IMG/VR virus record: IMGVR_UViG_3300027741_000002
Location: 1-64,000 of that record
Reading direction: 5' to 3' (one strand)
Source: a virus
DNA length: 64,000 nt
Below, one piece after another: positions 55,593 through 64,000 of the stretch. The notes beneath the pieces were generated by a model. It was not told the origin of the DNA and did no database searches. It saw only the letters and a program-made list of their open reading frames with translations. How positions within the stretch are numbered: position 1 is the first letter of the stretch; each line of letters opens with the position of its first letter. The position numbers were made by a program, and so were the translations under genes.

Positions 55593-58500
55593 CTAGGTTA
55601 ATAGTCGAAGAAGTTTACTTAACTCAGAGGAAATCTCCTGCTGAGTATAGTAGTCTCCACCGGACATAAAGGACCGCAAGCCCACGGTTGCCTCTTGAGC
55701 ATCTTTTGCACCGATCTTGTCTGTCACTCGTGACAGCATATCGTCCATAAGATTTTTTAAAGCTGGAGGAAGATCACTGTAGCGAACTTTCTCTGTTTCA
55801 CTCCCAAACGGCAACGGCAGGTTAGCAATAACCTCGCCTAAGGCTTTTGCCGAGGAACGAACATTTTCTAGTGCCTGTGGATTTAGAGCTCCAGAGTCTA
55901 GTCTATCTACGATACCAATAACATCGTTGGCAGCCTTAGCTGCGTCCTGGTAGTTACCGACCTCGTTGAGCTGCTCTGCCTTGGCTACTTTTTGCACTAC
56001 GTCTTGAAGACCAGCTGCGCCAAGATCTTGCTTAATGCGTGCTAGAACTTTACGAAACTTGCCTTTTTCATCACGCGGTTGAGTGTCAGGAGTATATTTA
56101 CCCTGCGCTTGAGCCTCAACCGCTAATGTTTTTCCCATATCATCGCCTAGCTTAGCGGAAAACTCGGCTAACCGCGTACGAAGATCATCAACGTCCTCGT
56201 CTACCGTGGATAGCGATTTCCATTCGTCGGGGACAAGATCCGGTCGGTCAAGTTTCTTAGCCATCTTCGTGATATGGCGACGAACCGCGGCCTTATGTCC
56301 AGCCTTAGCTCTACCGTACGCCTGCACCGCGTTCTTTACATCTTCAACGTTAGTGATAGGGAATGAACCGTCAGGAAGAGCTCTTCCTTCCTTGGCAAGC
56401 TGCATTCTTTTTGCTCGTGAGACAGTCGCAAATTCATCATCGTAGCGAGGCGCGCCATGAATACGGGCGTAAGCTTCAGCTGCCTTAATTGAAAGCTGAG
56501 CTTCCTTCTCTTGACGGACTATATCAAACTTTGCCTTTGCGACATCCGCTTTTGTAGAAAGTTGCGCGTTTTCTAACTGCTCCAGTTTTTCAATTCTAGA
56601 GCTTAATTCTGCGACAGGATCTGACTTCATGCGTGCAAGTACTTGAGCACCTGCCGCAACCAATGCCATAACCGCACCTGAGGCTACTCGAGCGCGTGCA
56701 ATAGGGAAGCCTGGTACGTTTACCTGGCAAACAGCCACAAGCTCGAGCTGACCCTTAATTGGACGCCAGTCACCGGAAGGCGCAGACGCACGAAGGGCAC
56801 GAACTTGCTCTGGAGATGTGCCTGGACGTAAAGCACCAGATACCCAGATACCAAATGCATCTTCTCCTGCATGGACATCTGCAATTGCTGAGCCAGTGTC
56901 GTCATAGTGACGAGCAGCTTCGTGAGCAGATGCTTCTAGTGAAGCGTGGCCTCCGGCTAATGTTAATTGGCCTACAGGAACATCTGTTCCTTCGTCTGTG
57001 CGAACAACACCCGTGTGGAAGTAGGCGTACTTGCTCTTTGAGCGCGGTGGACGAGTCCCGAATGACATTCCAATATGATCAACATGCCATGCAGCAATGT
57101 GACCAAACACTCGGCCGTCATCGTCTACAGTCAAAGGCGTTGCCTGACGCAGTTGCGGATTGTCAAACCACGAGGTAGGTGGTGTTACTGGGATAGAACC
57201 TGCAACAAGGCCACACGCAACAAGCGCTGACGCTTCAGTGGGATCCATTTCATCGGCGTATACTCCGTCTGGGATAGTCACGCTGTCCTCCTGAGTCTTG
57301 TCATTATCGACAAGGTAGATTTGGCACTCTTGAAATGCCGGTTTAGGCACTAGAGTTACCGCCATAACACGCGCATGAGTAATCATGAGCTTGTCCGTTC
57401 CGATTTTACCATCTTCTTCATTTTCAGATAATTCAGCTATATGCTGGCTTGCCTCGAATTGATCTAGGTCAGCGGAAACACCGCGGATAAATCCTTCGCG
57501 CACGAGACGCTCGGCTTCCTGTCCGTATGCACCGGAGTCAAAGACTCCTGTGGCGTTTCCAATTCCATTTTCAACACGCTCCATGTGATCAATGCGGCCG
57601 ACAACAACTGAGCCGTTGTGGCCTTCATCTGTCTTGATCTGCCACATCAAAGGAAGAGGCAGTTCACGGATCTCAATCGCGCCCTTTTCAAACTTGCGAC
57701 CGTCTCCAGACTCAAGATCCTCTGGGATAACGAGAGGAATTGTAAATGCTGCGCCATCAGGCATCTCTACCTCGGCCCCAGCTGTAATGACACGCAGGCG
57801 CGCATCGGCAGCCCTAGCAGAAAGCACAGAAGAAGATAATACGTCTTCATATGAGTTAATACCGTCGATGGCAAATACTCCTTTGTTATGGCCAGGATTG
57901 TTCTTATCGCCAGGCCACATTCCTGTCATTTCATGGTGGCGCAAGGAGCAATACCCCTTAGCACGTGGACCCATGTACTTCTTTAGGTGTCGATAGCAAC
58001 GTGTCCAATCGCCGGGAGTTCCCCAGCGAATCTTTAGTCCACCCTTACCGATTGTCCAGTAACGGCGAAGTGTTTCCGCGTTGCCTCTATTTTGATCTAA
58101 TCCACCGGCTGCGGTCATACCGTAGTCACATTCCTGAGCCATTAAATCATCATCCATAAGAAGAATAATGATCTCATCGTCAGGTTCAAATGTTGGGTCA
58201 TAGATGTCATCAGGAGTGCTGATGATGTCATCAATGTCCATTCCCATATCTTGAGGAGTAACCTCGGTAGTTGGTAGTGTTTCAGAGACAAATTCTTCTA
58301 CAGAATTATTACGAGCACGGTCACGCTTTGCATGGGTGGAGGTGTAGATACCAATCGCGTCCTTATGACGAAGTTGACAATAGCCTTTAGCGCGAGGTCC
58401 TAGGTACTTAGCGAGGTGACGAACACAACGTGCCCAGTCTCCCTTAGTGCCCCAACGAATCTTTGCCGCACCTTTTCCGCTTGTCCAATAGCGACGTAGT

Positions 58501-60704
58501 GTTTCAGCATTACCGCGATTACGATCTGGTCCTCCAGCAGCTGTCATCATCATGACGTTCCCGTTAGCACCCCATAGAACGGTAATGATGTCTGAATCAG
58601 AGTAAGCAGATGAGACTACAACTGGGATAACACCATCAACCTGCTGAATTACGCTCTGTAGTGATTCTCCGTCAAGAGGTACGACAGGCGGTGGAGTAGC
58701 GGACTTAATATCAGCAAGAACGGACTCATCTCTAACCCACTTCTTATCCTTACGTGCGTAGGTCATTGGCTCTAGTGACGTAGAGCTTGCAGGGACTAGA
58801 GAAATTAAGTCTAGAACAGCCGATGGATCATCCTGAGATACTACAGCAAAGAACATAGGCTGTACGTCGCTGCTTTCTGGTGCCATCTCTACAGAGTTGC
58901 CAGGCTTATTTTGATTAGTCTCTTGTTCCTTTATTTTCTTTGCATCTTCAGGAGACTCATAGGAGCCACTGCCACGAACTACAGGTTGGTAGTAAACCTT
59001 GTTTGGATAATAGTAGCTTCCGTCCGAGCCTTTTACCTTCTTGTTTAGAAAGCTTTTAAGAACAGGGTGCATATATGGATCTGTGATTAACTTTACGCCT
59101 GTTAACTTTTCAAGAGCTGTTAGATTTTCTGTTTTTGCAGGTTGAGGAACTTGTCCTGGTCCTGTGATAAGTTTTCTTTTCTTTTCAGGAGTAGCGTTTG
59201 GGACACCTGCGCTAGGAGTAGCAGGATTGGCGTTAAACGCATCACGTTGTGATTTAACCCACGTTGGCCAATCTGAAAGAATAGTCGCAAGGTCTCCTTG
59301 AGAAAGTGCTGGAAGAGTTCCAGGAATTCTTGCGTTAGGACGGTCAATAGGAGCTCTAGGTTGACCTAGAATTCCAGAGGTATCGAGTGGGGTTACATCA
59401 ACAGTGTTGTCTACCGGAGCTGTAACAACACTTTCAGGAGCGGTTGCAACAGCCGGTACATCAACAATACTTCCGGAGTCTAACTGGACCTTAAGTGATT
59501 GCTTTGCAGGATCTATTGAAACAATATTTCCTGAGCCTTTAGCTGCATCTCCGCCGATAACAACTCTTGATCCAACCTTAGCAAATCTTCCTGTCTTATC
59601 ACGTACCTGTTGTTGAGCCTTAGCAGAACGCTCTTCAGGAGTATAGTTTCCGTCCTGATTTACTGGAGTATCAGAAGGAGTAACAACCGCTGCTGTAATA
59701 ACTCTATCTATAAGTTTGTAATCTAGCTCTGAGGCTGCCTTCATAATCATGTCAGCTTCATCGTAGTTGATATCAAACAACGAGACGTAGTGTCCTGGAT
59801 TTTCCTGTAGACACGCAGAGATAAAGAGTGCAGACTCCGCATCAATCTCAACGTGAGTTTTTTCAACAGTGTCGTCTGGATTGTCAAGAGCTAGGTCGTA
59901 GCTTGCAAAGTCAGAGTGTACATCTGGCATAGAGTGCCAGAACCCTGCATCCCACACGGAAACGTTATAAGCATCATCTACCTTATAGAGACGGTCAATA
60001 CCAGAGCCGTCCATACGCATGCGGGCAAGAAACTCAACTGCTCCATTATCGGTGGCTGCCGCAATCTTAAATGCGTCAACGTCTGCGTCATAGCTGGTAT
60101 CTGTTGCGTAGTTATACGCGTCTTCTTCATAGCCGTGATCTGTGTAACCGTCAGCTCTTAACGCTTTTTTGTTCTCGCGCTCGACGATTGTCTGCGCCCA
60201 TTTCCATCCCGCGTCTCCGCCCCAGAGAGCCCACGCAATACGCCCGCGAGAAGGAAAGCCTTCTTCACCTGGCTTATAGCCCGTCGCCTTCTTATCAACT
60301 TCATGACGAGGAAAATACTTAGCAATATGACGAACTTTTTCAATTCCAATTTGGCCACCTTTCGCCAACGTACGCGCTGTGTTAAGACCTACAGGTGTTC
60401 CACCACGATGAAACTCCTTGTGCCAGTCTAAAGCACGGTTAGCTTCCTCCTGGGCGCCTTTAGGAATGGTATACATACGACCGGCGGATGAAACGATGCT
60501 TACGTTCAGGGTCGTTAATGCAGCCTGCGCAAGCTCGGCAGTAGACTCATCAAACTCTATGCTGTCGTCCTGCCACTTTGCAGAAGCAATAAGGGCTGAC
60601 AGTGGGCCAGAATCAACTACAACGTTTTCTTCAACGTCAATAACAACGCCGCTGTTCTCGTTAGAGAATAGAACGTGCGAACCATTCTTACCTACGATAT
60701 CCAT
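55593..60704 (-). CDS. Head maturation protease polyprotein
   Basis: ATG 60704 follows the upstream stop by one base (GGGAAG before it); a TTG 14 codons earlier overlaps that gene. 1703 residues. Residues about 150-180 contain RIAWALWGGDAGWKWAQ. A basic motif of about 60 residues (NAETLRRYW..GKG, IRWGT.GDW, GPRAKGYC.LRH) occurs twice, near 720 and 865. The prohead protease domain (about 970-1130) has VVGRIDHMERV (His1040) and RGVSADLD (Ser1077), as in the HK97/S78 protease family. A conserved extension (GRVFGHIAAWHVDHIG, GSAIADVHAGEDAFGIWVSG) and a helical C-terminus follow. The protease matures the capsid; other parts probably remain in the head or scaffold it. Confidence 0.83.
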   Translation of the reverse strand: MDIVGKNGSHVLFSNENSGVVIDVEENVVVDSGPLSALIASAKWQDDSIEFDESTAELAQAALTTLNVSIVSSAGRMYTIPKGAQEEANRALDWHKEFHRGGTPVGLNTARTLAKGGQIGIEKVRHIAKYFPRHEVDKKATGYKPGEEGFPSRGRIAWALWGGDAGWKWAQTIVERENKKALRADGYTDHGYEEDAYNYATDTSYDADVDAFKIAAATDNGAVEFLARMRMDGSGIDRLYKVDDAYNVSVWDAGFWHSMPDVHSDFASYDLALDNPDDTVEKTHVEIDAESALFISACLQENPGHYVSLFDINYDEADMIMKAASELDYKLIDRVITAAVVTPSDTPVNQDGNYTPEERSAKAQQQVRDKTGRFAKVGSRVVIGGDAAKGSGNIVSIDPAKQSLKVQLDSGSIVDVPAVATAPESVVTAPVDNTVDVTPLDTSGILGQPRAPIDRPNARIPGTLPALSQGDLATILSDWPTWVKSQRDAFNANPATPSAGVPNATPEKKRKLITGPGQVPQPAKTENLTALEKLTGVKLITDPYMHPVLKSFLNKKVKGSDGSYYYPNKVYYQPVVRGSGSYESPEDAKKIKEQETNQNKPGNSVEMAPESSDVQPMFFAVVSQDDPSAVLDLISLVPASSTSLEPMTYARKDKKWVRDESVLADIKSATPPPVVPLDGESLQSVIQQVDGVIPVVVSSAYSDSDIITVLWGANGNVMMMTAAGGPDRNRGNAETLRRYWTSGKGAAKIRWGTKGDWARCVRHLAKYLGPRAKGYCQLRHKDAIGIYTSTHAKRDRARNNSVEEFVSETLPTTEVTPQDMGMDIDDIISTPDDIYDPTFEPDDEIIILLMDDDLMAQECDYGMTAAGGLDQNRGNAETLRRYWTIGKGGLKIRWGTPGDWTRCYRHLKKYMGPRAKGYCSLRHHEMTGMWPGDKNNPGHNKGVFAIDGINSYEDVLSSSVLSARAADARLRVITAGAEVEMPDGAAFTIPLVIPEDLESGDGRKFEKGAIEIRELPLPLMWQIKTDEGHNGSVVVGRIDHMERVENGIGNATGVFDSGAYGQEAERLVREGFIRGVSADLDQFEASQHIAELSENEEDGKIGTDKLMITHARVMAVTLVPKPAFQECQIYLVDNDKTQEDSVTIPDGVYADEMDPTEASALVACGLVAGSIPVTPPTSWFDNPQLRQATPLTVDDDGRVFGHIAAWHVDHIGMSFGTRPPRSKSKYAYFHTGVVRTDEGTDVPVGQLTLAGGHASLEASAHEAARHYDDTGSAIADVHAGEDAFGIWVSGALRPGTSPEQVRALRASAPSGDWRPIKGQLELVAVCQVNVPGFPIARARVASGAVMALVAAGAQVLARMKSDPVAELSSRIEKLEQLENAQLSTKADVAKAKFDIVRQEKEAQLSIKAAEAYARIHGAPRYDDEFATVSRAKRMQLAKEGRALPDGSFPITNVEDVKNAVQAYGRAKAGHKAAVRRHITKMAKKLDRPDLVPDEWKSLSTVDEDVDDLRTRLAEFSAKLGDDMGKTLAVEAQAQGKYTPDTQPRDEKGKFRKVLARIKQDLGAAGLQDVVQKVAKAEQLNEVGNYQDAAKAANDVIGIVDRLDSGALNPQALENVRSSAKALGEVIANLPLPFGSETEKVRYSDLPPALKNLMDDMLSRVTDKIGAKDAQEATVGLRSFMSGGDYYTQQEISSELSKLLRLLT
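57905..58545 (-). repeat. Duplicated basic motif inside the protease polyprotein
   Basis: Two copies at about 58340-58545 and 57905-58105 encode the same block (NRGNAETLRRYWT, KGYC, GPRAKG) and each is preceded by MTAAGG. Identity looks about 60%. Unique acidic sequence separates them. Their basic, aromatic, cysteine-containing nature suggests DNA or portal contact. Confidence 0.8.
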
Positions 60705-61308: not shown

Positions 61309-64000
61309 TTAGTTCCAGAAAGATGGCTTAAGAATGCGTAGGAATCTTGCATGAACAGCGCCATTTGGCTTCAACATTGCGTCAAGACGCTGATTGATTG
61401 CATCGCGGTAGTTATTTAAGCTTCCCCACTGGGCAATAACCATGTCAAGCTCTTTTCCAGCCAGCTGAATGTTTCCATCCTTAAGACTTTCGCGTAAGTT
61501 ATTTGCTTCATTTCTAAACAATGCCAGCAAATCTTCTTCCTTCATAGCGCGAGTAAGCGCAGGCATTGTTAGATCATAAATCTTGCCGTCGCCTTCACCA
61601 AGTATAGCGTCAAATAGATACTGGTTTCTATCTCCTGGCTTTAACGCAAAAGAAGATAATGAATGGTCAATTGGGAAGATACGAATTTGAGATGGATTGA
61701 CTCCGTCAAGTGCGTAGAGGATGTTTCCATTATGGCGATCTTGATTGTTGATGAGCAGATCGAGAAGAACTACGCGTGCAGCGTCTTCAGGAGTATGCAT
61801 CTTGTTAATAAAATTATCACCGTTAAATGTTACTTTGCTACCATCAAGCGCTACAAGTGTACCGGTCGTGCCGTCATAGACCTTTGATGCAACCCGTGGC
61901 TCGCTGCCGAGAGGAAGTGTAGATCCAGCTTCCTGCATAACAAGAACATTAGGATTATCACTGCTTACTAGCGTGTTGTATGCTCCTTCAAATCCAATAC
62001 CGCGCGCGATATTAGTTGCGGCAATCTCGGAAAGAGGTCCACTAATATCATAGTTAGTTGCTAGATCATCCTTCTTGACATAGAAGCGTTGTCCCGATGC
62101 AACATGAGTAGCAAGCCATGTGTCGTTGTAACCTGACTCATACATGCCAAGACGTTTAATATCAAAGCCTTTAACCTTATTTTGCGAGATGTCTTCTATA
62201 GTAGCACTAGCAAGATCTGTTCCTACGCCAAAGTCGGTAGAATTAAGTAGAGGGTTGTCTGCCTTAGCCTCGGCGTGAAGTGCCTTACGTAGTTGGAAGA
62301 TGTCCTGCATTGGCAGATCTCTTCCTTCCTTAGTTAAAAGTTGTTTTGTAACATATGTATTAAGCGCTGTCTTTGCAGCTGGAGAAAGAACTGCTAGAGA
62401 TCTATTGTTTTGCAGTACGTCTCTGATTTCAGCTAAGTACTGCCCAAGCTCTGAGTTCTTATTGCCAAACTCGTTACTGTTTGCAGTCATGACAAATTCA
62501 CGACCGACGTTAGGCTTATTTTCTTTTGCCTCTATACGCTTACGCGCTGCACGAATCTGATCATAATTTACTGACTGTACTTGCTCCTTGACTGTAGGAT
62601 CAAGTCGCTTGACGCCCATCCAGCCATTTCTTGCCATAAGATCTTTACCGGTCCAGGTCTTTGCACCTGGATACCAACCAACAAGAGCAAGCTCCATAGG
62701 AGTTGGCGTCTTATTTAGATCTAATCCGCCGTCACGAAGTTTAGCCGCTGTTGCTTTTTCCTGTAGACGTTCAATCTGTGCAATTACACCTTTGTCCGTA
62801 GCTACACGTCGCATCAGTCTTAATCGTGTAAATACTTCACTCTCTGCACTGGCAGGAGTTTCCCAGTTAAATCCGTTTAGCGCCCAGACAAATCCACCTT
62901 GGTAGCTTCCTCCACCTGCAGCCTGCACATGAATTTCCTTAACTCCATTGGCGATATACCAATCTTCCATAAAACGGTTATACGCTGTAGCAAATCCAGA
63001 TTTTTTATCCTTAGCGTTATTTATAGCTAGGTAGTTATTCTTTACCTGCCACTCGAAGTTGTTAGCTCCTGTATTAGGATCTACAGCTGATTTACCACTA
63101 ACTGTTCTATTTATCGTTCCGATGCTTCTGCCATTAGAGTCTAAAACATTCATTGCGATACTAAGACTCACGGGCTGATTGCCAGCTTGTAGTTCTTCCT
63201 TTGTTCCGCTTAAGAATACATTAAATCCACCAAATGTTAGCGAGTAGTTATTCTTTCCAAACGTTACGCCATCGCGAACACCGTAGGTATCCTTCATCAT
63301 CGCGTCAAGCTGCTCTTTTTTCTTAGTGACTTCTAAAGATAGCGCTTCTTTTTGTGCTGCAGGAGCCGCACGGAACTCGAGGATAGCTAGTTGATGATCA
63401 ATAGCTGCCTGCTTAATACTTTCAAGAGTTACACGATCTTGAGCTGCCCTAGCAATTTCTCCCGCGCGCAGACCCCAGACAGAGTAGTCGCTTTGTTTTG
63501 CATCGGGATTTGTGAATTCTTTTAGACGATCTGGAGTAGTTCCAAGATCGTTAACACCTTGGATATTTCCTTCAGTTGCAATTGCTCCAGGGTTAAGAAC
63601 CGGTGCGTCAAGGCGTGATGATACATCTGGAACTGGCGGAGGAGTAGGTGCCTGTCGCTGAGCTTCATTAGGAACTGCCTGCTGCGCATCTCCAGTTGCT
63701 CGTACCTTAAGTGCAGAGCGAACTGCTACTGACCCGTCGTCAAAACGCACACGAACATAAGGAATACGTTCACCTGTGCGTGAGTCAATATTTTGAACTG
63801 CGATAACTGTTCCAGTGCGGCCATCACGAGAAGCACGAATACGTGTTCCCTTGCCCATAACCTTACCTGCAATATCAAGAACTGTGTTGTCTGGGTGATA
63901 CCCACGATTTTCTGGTCCCGGGTAGACAGGCGCTGGGTTATTAGCTGCAGGAGAATCTACACTTACTGTCTCTACAGGTTGCGCTACTTCTGGCGCTTGA
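61309..64000 (-). CDS. Large virion-region protein with HipA/PI3K-like kinase domain (5'-truncated)
   Basis: The frame is open to base 64000, and the upstream codons (reading ...PGPENRGYHPDNTVLDIAG, then KVMGKGTRIRASRDG) are clearly coding, so the ATG at 63858 is internal and the gene starts outside the window. A KOW/SH3-like segment (GRTGTVIAVQNIDSRTGERI; VRVRFDDGSVAVRS) is followed by a helical middle. About 62990-62900 encode an acetyltransferase-like WYIANGVKEIHVQAAGGGSY. The C-terminal third has DTWLATHVASGQRFYVKKDD (Lys strand), LLINNQDRHNGNILYALDG (catalytic D-R-H-x-x-N) and IFPIDHSLSSF (metal Asp), typical of the PI3K/HipA/FAM20 kinase lineage. Possibly injected with DNA; inference. 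Confidence 0.72.
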   Translation of the reverse strand, partial: QAPEVAQPVETVSVDSPAANNPAPVYPGPENRGYHPDNTVLDIAGKVMGKGTRIRASRDGRTGTVIAVQNIDSRTGERIPYVRVRFDDGSVAVRSALKVRATGDAQQAVPNEAQRQAPTPPPVPDVSSRLDAPVLNPGAIATEGNIQGVNDLGTTPDRLKEFTNPDAKQSDYSVWGLRAGEIARAAQDRVTLESIKQAAIDHQLAILEFRAAPAAQKEALSLEVTKKKEQLDAMMKDTYGVRDGVTFGKNNYSLTFGGFNVFLSGTKEELQAGNQPVSLSIAMNVLDSNGRSIGTINRTVSGKSAVDPNTGANNFEWQVKNNYLAINNAKDKKSGFATAYNRFMEDWYIANGVKEIHVQAAGGGSYQGGFVWALNGFNWETPASAESEVFTRLRLMRRVATDKGVIAQIERLQEKATAAKLRDGGLDLNKTPTPMELALVGWYPGAKTWTGKDLMARNGWMGVKRLDPTVKEQVQSVNYDQIRAARKRIEAKENKPNVGREFVMTANSNEFGNKNSELGQYLAEIRDVLQNNRSLAVLSPAAKTALNTYVTKQLLTKEGRDLPMQDIFQLRKALHAEAKADNPLLNSTDFGVGTDLASATIEDISQNKVKGFDIKRLGMYESGYNDTWLATHVASGQRFYVKKDDLATNYDISGPLSEIAATNIARGIGFEGAYNTLVSSDNPNVLVMQEAGSTLPLGSEPRVASKVYDGTTGTLVALDGSKVTFNGDNFINKMHTPEDAARVVLLDLLINNQDRHNGNILYALDGVNPSQIRIFPIDHSLSSFALKPGDRNQYLFDAILGEGDGKIYDLTMPALTRAMKEEDLLALFRNEANNLRESLKDGNIQLAGKELDMVIAQWGSLNNYRDAINQRLDAMLKPNGAVHARFLRILKPSFWN

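What the first reader, a model, noticed from the sequence alone, without database searches (positions are those of the whole stretch)
61309..64000. Kinase-like domain in a head-region protein, in the usual position of MuF-type effectors
NNQDRHNGN and FPIDHS define a PI3K/HipA/FAM20-like catalytic core in a gene located upstream of the protease gene, where phages often encode MuF fusions with toxin domains. The protein may be packaged and injected to phosphorylate host targets, or regulate assembly.
Basis: partly seen in the sequence, partly recalled or inferred. Interest (0 to 1): 0.6.

Follow-up and report, generated by a model that had tools for sequence, protein, structure and literature searches.

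The report
Giant phage-head protein carrying a kinase
Next to its capsid genes this phage of uncultured bacteria encodes a 1,912-residue protein that ends in an acetyltransferase-like and a protein-kinase-like domain with an intact active site, probably a package of host-modifying enzymes carried in the virus head and injected into the bacterium, a kind of cargo already known but not, in the papers I could search, with this type of kinase.

Summary
The ORF is the C-terminal 896 residues of a complete 1,912-aa gene (G000 61309-67047, minus strand), between the portal/Dps-fusion genes and the protease and major capsid genes. Residues ~1628-1892 form a kinase fold (AF2 pLDDT 79). K1658, E1674, D1770-R-H-x-x-N1775 and D1794 sit where a kinase needs them and are invariant in every one of 36 distinct relatives that covers them. 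Closest solved relatives: CotH, PI3K/Vps34, PknB, H. pylori CtkA. A GNAT-fold acetyltransferase domain (~1268-1481) precedes it; the same GNAT ends a MuF protein of phage Jera. Relatives keep the N-terminal module (~400 aa) but swap C-termini: ADP-ribosyltransferase, UvrD helicase/exonuclease, or a second kinase-like family. Similar kinases stand in other phages' head operons, once fused to MuF (L143). This protein itself has no detectable MuF domain. Most likely it is a polyvalent head-cargo protein, injected to phosphorylate and acetylate host targets; packaging, injection and activity are inferred. New variant of a known kind. By-product: motif QxRDxxG[RK][FWY], found only in these cargo, protease and related head-operon proteins, a candidate capsid-targeting or processing signal.

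The parts
61309..64000 (-). C-terminal 896 residues of the 1,912-aa head-operon protein P0001 (whole gene G000 61309-67047, beyond the window)
61312..62166 (-). Kinase-fold domain and C-terminal helical tail, residues 1628-1912
   Evidence: AF2 model pLDDT 78.6, pTM 0.78; Foldseek to CotH, PI3K, PknB, CtkA; PF00454 E 1.4e-4, below cut-off; alignment A3
62074..62076 (-). Codon of K1658 (FYVKK), beta-3 lysine
   Evidence: invariant; in strand E69-74 of the model
62026..62028 (-). Codon of E1674, alpha-C glutamate
   Evidence: invariant; in helix H85-98 of the model
61723..61749 (-). Catalytic loop NNQDRHNGN (D1770, N1775)
   Evidence: loop between helix 168-181 and strand 191-196 of the model
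61660..61677 (-). FPIDHS, D1794 in the DFG position
   Evidence: follows strand 203-207 of the model
62605..63246 (-). GNAT-fold (N-acetyltransferase-like) domain, residues about 1268-1481; acetyl-CoA motif KKSGFATA at 62983-63006
   Evidence: AF2 pLDDT 85, Foldseek top hits are GNATs, best E 0.025; one relative hits PF00583 at 4e-5; shared with the MuF protein of phage Jera
60706..61299 (-). 197-aa protein of unknown function, 9 nt downstream of P0001
55593..60746 (-). Head maturation protease-like giant protein, 1,717 aa (P0004)
   Evidence: phrog_859, 18402, 29860
59583..59609 (-). Motif QVRDKTGRF in P0004 (same motif as QWRDKKGRW, residues 206-214 of P0001, at G000 66406-66432)
56055..56081 (-). 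Motif QPRDEKGKF in P0004
53412..55463 (-). Major capsid protein, 683 aa (P0005)
   Evidence: phrog_777 E 7e-81

Best explanation
P0001 is a polyvalent head-cargo protein. A conserved N-terminal module (about 400 residues, carrying the QxRDxxGRW motif) directs it into the procapsid near the portal. The C-terminal part carries enzymes: a GNAT-fold acetyltransferase and a HipA/CtkA/PI3K-like protein kinase. After injection with the DNA these modify host proteins (phosphorylation and acetylation) early in infection, before phage genes are expressed, in the manner of T4 Alt. Shown: the gene, its position, both folds (by prediction), invariant catalytic residues, purifying selection, and replacement of the C-terminal enzymes in relatives. 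Inferred: packaging, injection, enzymatic activity, protein substrates, benefit to the phage.
For: Head operon, same strand, gaps of 2 to 11 nt between portal, Dps-fusion, P0001 and the 197-aa gene. Kinase fold with K, E, D-R-H-N, D in canonical places, invariant in all covering sequences of 36 distinct. GNAT fold. GNAT and kinase occur together in 60 proteins and the kinase domain is C-terminal. Slot proteins of relatives share the N-terminus but carry ART, UvrD helicase plus exonuclease, or a second kinase-like family instead. Comparable kinases in head operons of unrelated phages: MuF-kinase fusion L143, L144 beside portal and protease, L145 in a 3,067-aa protein before the capsid gene, L147 after the portal, Pumpernickel. 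Only two weak matches in a collection with one genome for each of 84,980 bacterial and archaeal species, so this kinase family looks essentially phage-borne. Precedent for injected ART/GNAT/kinase polyvalent proteins: PMC5512222; MuF-VIP2 fusions in Microbacterium phages: PMC7302621.
Against: No virion proteomics for this clade was found, so presence in the head is unproven. No MuF or other known head-docking domain was found in P0001 or the record. Profile scores for kinase families stay below curated cut-offs (PF00454 22.4 of 27.1 bits; TIGR03843 18.5 of 172.4). TM-scores to solved kinases are modest, at most about 0.5. The kinase may act on the phage's own proteins.
Confidence: 0.6

Rival explanations
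1. The kinase acts inside the infected cell during assembly, phosphorylating capsid, protease or Dps-like head proteins to time maturation; it need not be injected.
For: Encoded with and just before the protease and capsid genes; the kinase-GNAT pair is stably conserved within this clade.
Against: Relatives whose portals are 40-72% identical build heads with other enzymes or a different kinase-like family in this slot; similar kinases are fused to MuF or sit in head operons of unrelated phages.
Confidence: 0.15
2. The kinase-fold domain phosphorylates a small molecule or a lipid, or is an AMPylase-like enzyme or ATP-binding regulator, rather than a protein kinase.
For: Foldseek also places CotH, PI3K, LicA and other phosphotransferases near it; PF00454 and SCO1664-like similarity.
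Against: The best profile match among solved structures is the Ser/Thr kinase CtkA; the companion enzymes in the slot (ART, GNAT) are protein-modifying classes (PMC5512222).
Confidence: 0.15
3. A MuF polymorphic toxin carried by a temperate phage against bacterial competitors, with an immunity gene.
For: Position near the portal; MuF-kinase and MuF-GNAT relatives.
Against: No MuF domain; two enzymatic domains plus long conserved middle modules instead of one C-terminal toxin; the next gene is a 197-aa gene with no immunity family match. Integrase and lysogeny genes were not examined.
Confidence: 0.08

Closest known systems
Polyvalent proteins of phages (Iyer et al. 2017, PMC5512222)
   Same: Large multidomain proteins encoded among virion genes, combining protein-modifying enzymes (kinase, GNAT, ART), thought to be packaged and injected.
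   Different: The kinases described there are a separate group that lost the C-terminal lobe and occur mainly in Verrucomicrobia-Chlamydia and Bacteroidetes (pro)phages; here the model keeps C-terminal helices and the motif is DRHxGN...P[IV]D.
MuF polymorphic toxins (Jamet et al. 2017, PMC5576092)
   Same: Gene near the portal gene; head protein with variable C-terminal enzymes; a relative of this kinase and a relative of this GNAT are each found fused to MuF domains in other phages.
   Different: No MuF domain here; the word kinase does not occur in that paper's main text.
CtkA / HipA-like kinases (Helicobacter pylori CtkA, 3akj)
   Same: Best sequence-profile match in the PDB, E 0.005, aligned over the catalytic core with DRHNGN; Foldseek match with TM 0.47 on the target length.
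   Different: About 14% identity; no HipA family match over cut-off; embedded in a giant phage protein.
PI3_PI4_kinase PF00454 and SCO1664 family TIGR03843
   Same: Catalytic loop and metal-binding segment match in 14 of 16 and 13 of 14 relatives.
   Different: Scores of this protein are below the curated cut-offs; no evidence for a lipid substrate.
T4 Alt (functional analogue)
   Same: Head-packaged enzyme that modifies host proteins on injection (as summarised in PMC5512222).
   Different: Different chemistry (ADP-ribosylation) and unrelated fold.

Membership tests
Protein-kinase-like superfamily | Two-lobed fold with beta-3 Lys, alpha-C Glu, catalytic Asp/Asn loop and DFG-like Asp in order | tested here: met
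PF00454 PI3_PI4_kinase | Score over the curated cut-off of 27.1 bits | tested here: not met
   22.4 bits
HipA / CtkA kinases | HipA-family profile match over cut-off | tested here: not met
   No HipA hit for P0001 in Pfam; CtkA E 0.005 by profile only
FAM20C | PF06702 match | tested here: not met
   No hit for P0001; weak hit only in L143, E 0.027
GNAT acetyltransferases | GNAT fold and [RKQ]xxGx[GA] acetyl-CoA motif | tested here: met
   KKSGFA motif; fold search has GNATs at the top although the best E is 0.025; Pfam hit in one relative
MuF polymorphic toxins | N-terminal MuF domain (PF04233 or PF06152) | tested here: not met
MuF polymorphic toxins | Gene immediately downstream of the portal | tested here: not met
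   One gene (Dps fusion) lies between
Polyvalent proteins | Two or more disparate enzymatic or effector domains in one polypeptide, encoded among phage virion genes | tested here: met
   GNAT plus kinase between portal and protease
Polyvalent proteins | Packaged in the capsid and delivered to the host | not testable with these tools
   Needs virion proteomics
Polyvalent-protein kinase clade of PMC5512222 | Loss of the whole C-terminal kinase subdomain | tested here: not met
   Model has helices 168-181, 238-249, 252-271, 279-289, 292-307 in or after the catalytic part

The most novel reading that the evidence does not exclude
Tailed phages use a shared short head-targeting or processing signal, QxRDxxG[RK][FWY], on proteins that must enter the procapsid (cargo enzymes and the protease), and through it load interchangeable host-modifying enzymes, among them a previously unrecognised class of HipA/CtkA-like kinases.
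Probability: 0.25. Interest if true: 0.8.

Novelty: new variant of a known kind. Interest (0 to 1): 0.55.

Why it matters
If the protein is packaged, these phages deliver a ready-made protein kinase and an acetyltransferase in the first moments of infection, a route to host takeover known for ADP-ribosyltransferases but, in the papers searched, not for this kinase class. It also gives a defined slot in actinophage genomes in which cargo can be predicted, and a short motif that may mark cargo for packaging. Relatives with isolates (Pumpernickel, Zooman, Cece, Atuin, Racecar, Forza, Sixama) make the question directly testable.

Tried and rejected
tblastn of the kinase domain alone against 50,697 phage records found nothing, and phmmer of the whole protein against the PDB found nothing; profiles were needed. 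Weak matches of the C-terminal tail to Mn/Fe superoxide dismutases cover about 30 residues around a WGSxxAYR-like stretch and are rejected as chance. Membership in MuF toxins was tested and rejected. A first try at the kinase alignment failed on frame errors and was redone. Searches for papers on head-packaged HipA/CtkA/PI3K-like kinases found none; absence from this library is weak evidence. The literature search for the QxRDxxGRF motif found only general capsid-targeting and prohead-protease papers. L146 carries a related kinase but was not shown to be in a head operon; one of its neighbours is a DNA ligase, so not every relative is head cargo.

Full report
Observation. The ORF at 61309-64000 (minus strand) is real and open to the window's edge. 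The window is bases 1-64000 of a 129,506-base virus record. Reading on completes the gene: 61309-67047, 1,912 aa. Its neighbours on the same strand are, upstream, a 684-aa ferritin/Dps-type fusion protein (Pfam Ferritin E 2e-14, DUF5824) and a portal (phrog_776, E 9e-109), and downstream a 197-aa protein, a 1,717-aa head-protease-like protein and the major capsid protein.

Kinase. Pfam sees PI3_PI4_kinase at 1756-1797 with E 1.4e-4, below its cut-off, and PHROGs an unknown family, phrog_3162, at E 1e-8. An alignment of 14 relatives (A3) shows invariant K1658, E1674, D1770, R1771, H1772, N1775 and D1794. Over all relatives found, 36 distinct sequences, every sequence that covers these positions has the same residue. 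AlphaFold2 gives pLDDT 78.6, pTM 0.78, with the order beta1-beta2-beta3(K)-alphaC(E)-beta4-beta5-insert-alphaE-catalytic loop-beta7-beta8-D. Foldseek against the PDB puts CotH kinase, PknB, Vps34/PI3K and CtkA among the first hits; against viral models the first hit is a phage protein labelled phosphatidylinositol 3-/4-kinase catalytic domain. A profile search of the PDB has CtkA of H. pylori first (E 0.005). So it is a kinase-fold domain with a complete active site; which named family it belongs to is not settled, since no curated cut-off is met. dN/dS against L010 is 0.07 in this domain.

GNAT. Residues about 1268-1481 fold as a GNAT acetyltransferase (pLDDT 85; nearly all best Foldseek hits are GNATs, but the best E is only 0.025). 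It has the acetyl-CoA motif KKSGFA, conserved in most of 14 relatives, and one relative hits PF00583 at 4e-5. The same domain forms the C-terminus of the MuF-type protein (Phage_min_cap2, E 4e-40) of Microbacterium phage Jera, an independent link between this module and MuF head proteins. GNAT and kinase occur together in 60 proteins (not de-duplicated).

The slot. The portal finds relatives in 848 phage records and hundreds of uncultured contigs. In the closer ones the gene or genes between portal and protease are very large and variable: 3,289 aa in DSL-LC01, 2,235 aa in Pumpernickel, about 3,100 and 2,700 aa in Atuin and Racecar, annotated as DNA helicase, ART genes in Forza and Sixama. Homologues share the N-terminal ~400 residues and middle modules, while many contain insertions of several hundred residues at about residue 415-575 and some have different C-termini. 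Pfam finds ADP-ribosyltransferase in 3 and UvrD helicase and RNase_T exonuclease in 2 each of 16 slot proteins that lack this kinase. In DSL-LC01, six uncultured loci and the Gordonia phages Phendrix, Forza and Sixama I found a second kinase-like family (SNxGG...YYVK...NE...DAWLxNwD...DNI...RVDxGGxLxxRA), never in the same protein as the first; Foldseek independently lists the Sixama 774-residue protein among viral matches to the first kinase's model. I read this as a cargo locus in which a head-entry module is kept and effector enzymes are exchanged.

Other phages. A distant set of the same kinase type lies in other head operons: L143 is a single protein with a MuF domain (PF04233 E 8e-6, slightly below cut-off, supported by several PHROG minor head families) and a C-terminal kinase (PF00454 30.5 bits, above cut-off). 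L144 has it near a portal-head-morphogenesis protein and a protease, and L145 in a 3,067-aa protein two genes before the major capsid gene. L147 has it directly after a portal-like gene with other multidomain proteins (portal and other domains there read by eye). In a collection with one genome for each of 84,980 bacterial and archaeal species only two weak matches were found (pattern-based, so not exhaustive).

Motif. P0001 and the protease share QxRDxxG[RK][FWY] (P0001 206-214; P0004 381-389 and 1557-1565 of the stop-to-stop frame). In the whole record these are the only three occurrences; shuffled proteins gave a mean of 0.0 for the strict and 0.06 for a looser form. Among 6,323 ORFs of the loci there were 168 occurrences (not de-duplicated), all in homologues of P0001, P0004 or P0002 or in slot and polyvalent proteins of other phages; in complete DSL-LC01 the three occurrences are all in the head operon. 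The loci were chosen around head genes, so the two whole genomes are the fair test. It could be a capsid-targeting signal, a protease-processing site, or a common fold element; I cannot tell which.

Mechanism and confidence. Best: packaged with the DNA and injected, then kinase and GNAT modify host proteins (0.6 as a whole; about 0.95 for the kinase fold and 0.9 for the GNAT fold). Rivals: assembly regulation (0.15), non-protein substrate (0.15), classical MuF toxin (0.08). Known frame: polyvalent proteins (PMC5512222), MuF toxins (PMC5576092), MuF-VIP2 fusions in Microbacterium phages (PMC7302621). Those papers do not mention this kinase type in the passages searched.

Noticed in passing
window 59583-59609, 56055-56081; G000 66406-66432: Motif QxRDxxG[RK][FWY] occurs only in head-operon cargo and protease proteins, here and in relatives, and also repeatedly between domains of polyvalent proteins in L147.
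   Followed up: partly
L002 12060-14114 (G000 67059-69113): 684-aa head-operon protein with a Dps/ferritin domain, a cysteine-rich region and DUF5824, between portal and cargo gene.
   Followed up: no
L006 1659-1897 of the 3,290-aa ORF; L099, L100, L098, L074, L076, L086, L091: Second kinase-like domain family in the same slot of relatives, without a Pfam match in these scans.
   Followed up: partly
window about 57888-58540: P0004 contains two copies of a ~70-aa module (GNAETLRRYWTxGKGxxKIRWGTxGDWxRCxRHL, phrog_6439).
   Followed up: no
L143 532-2559: Direct fusion of a MuF domain with a C-terminal PI3K/HipA-like kinase.
   Followed up: partly
L147 4394-17002: Uncultured phage with several adjacent multidomain head-operon proteins whose domains are separated by KYSEDQARDxHGRF; by eye zeta-toxin-like, nucleotidyltransferase-like and other domains.
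   Followed up: no
P0001 residues about 415-575 in relatives L024, L031, L043, L051, L057, L066, L028, L068: Insertions of several hundred to over a thousand residues at the same place in homologues, with few known domains.
   Followed up: no
L150 5918-7777: Myxococcus phage Mx1 has an annotated 619-aa kinase beside a 1,479-aa NUDIX protein; similar to the L147 kinase.
   Followed up: no
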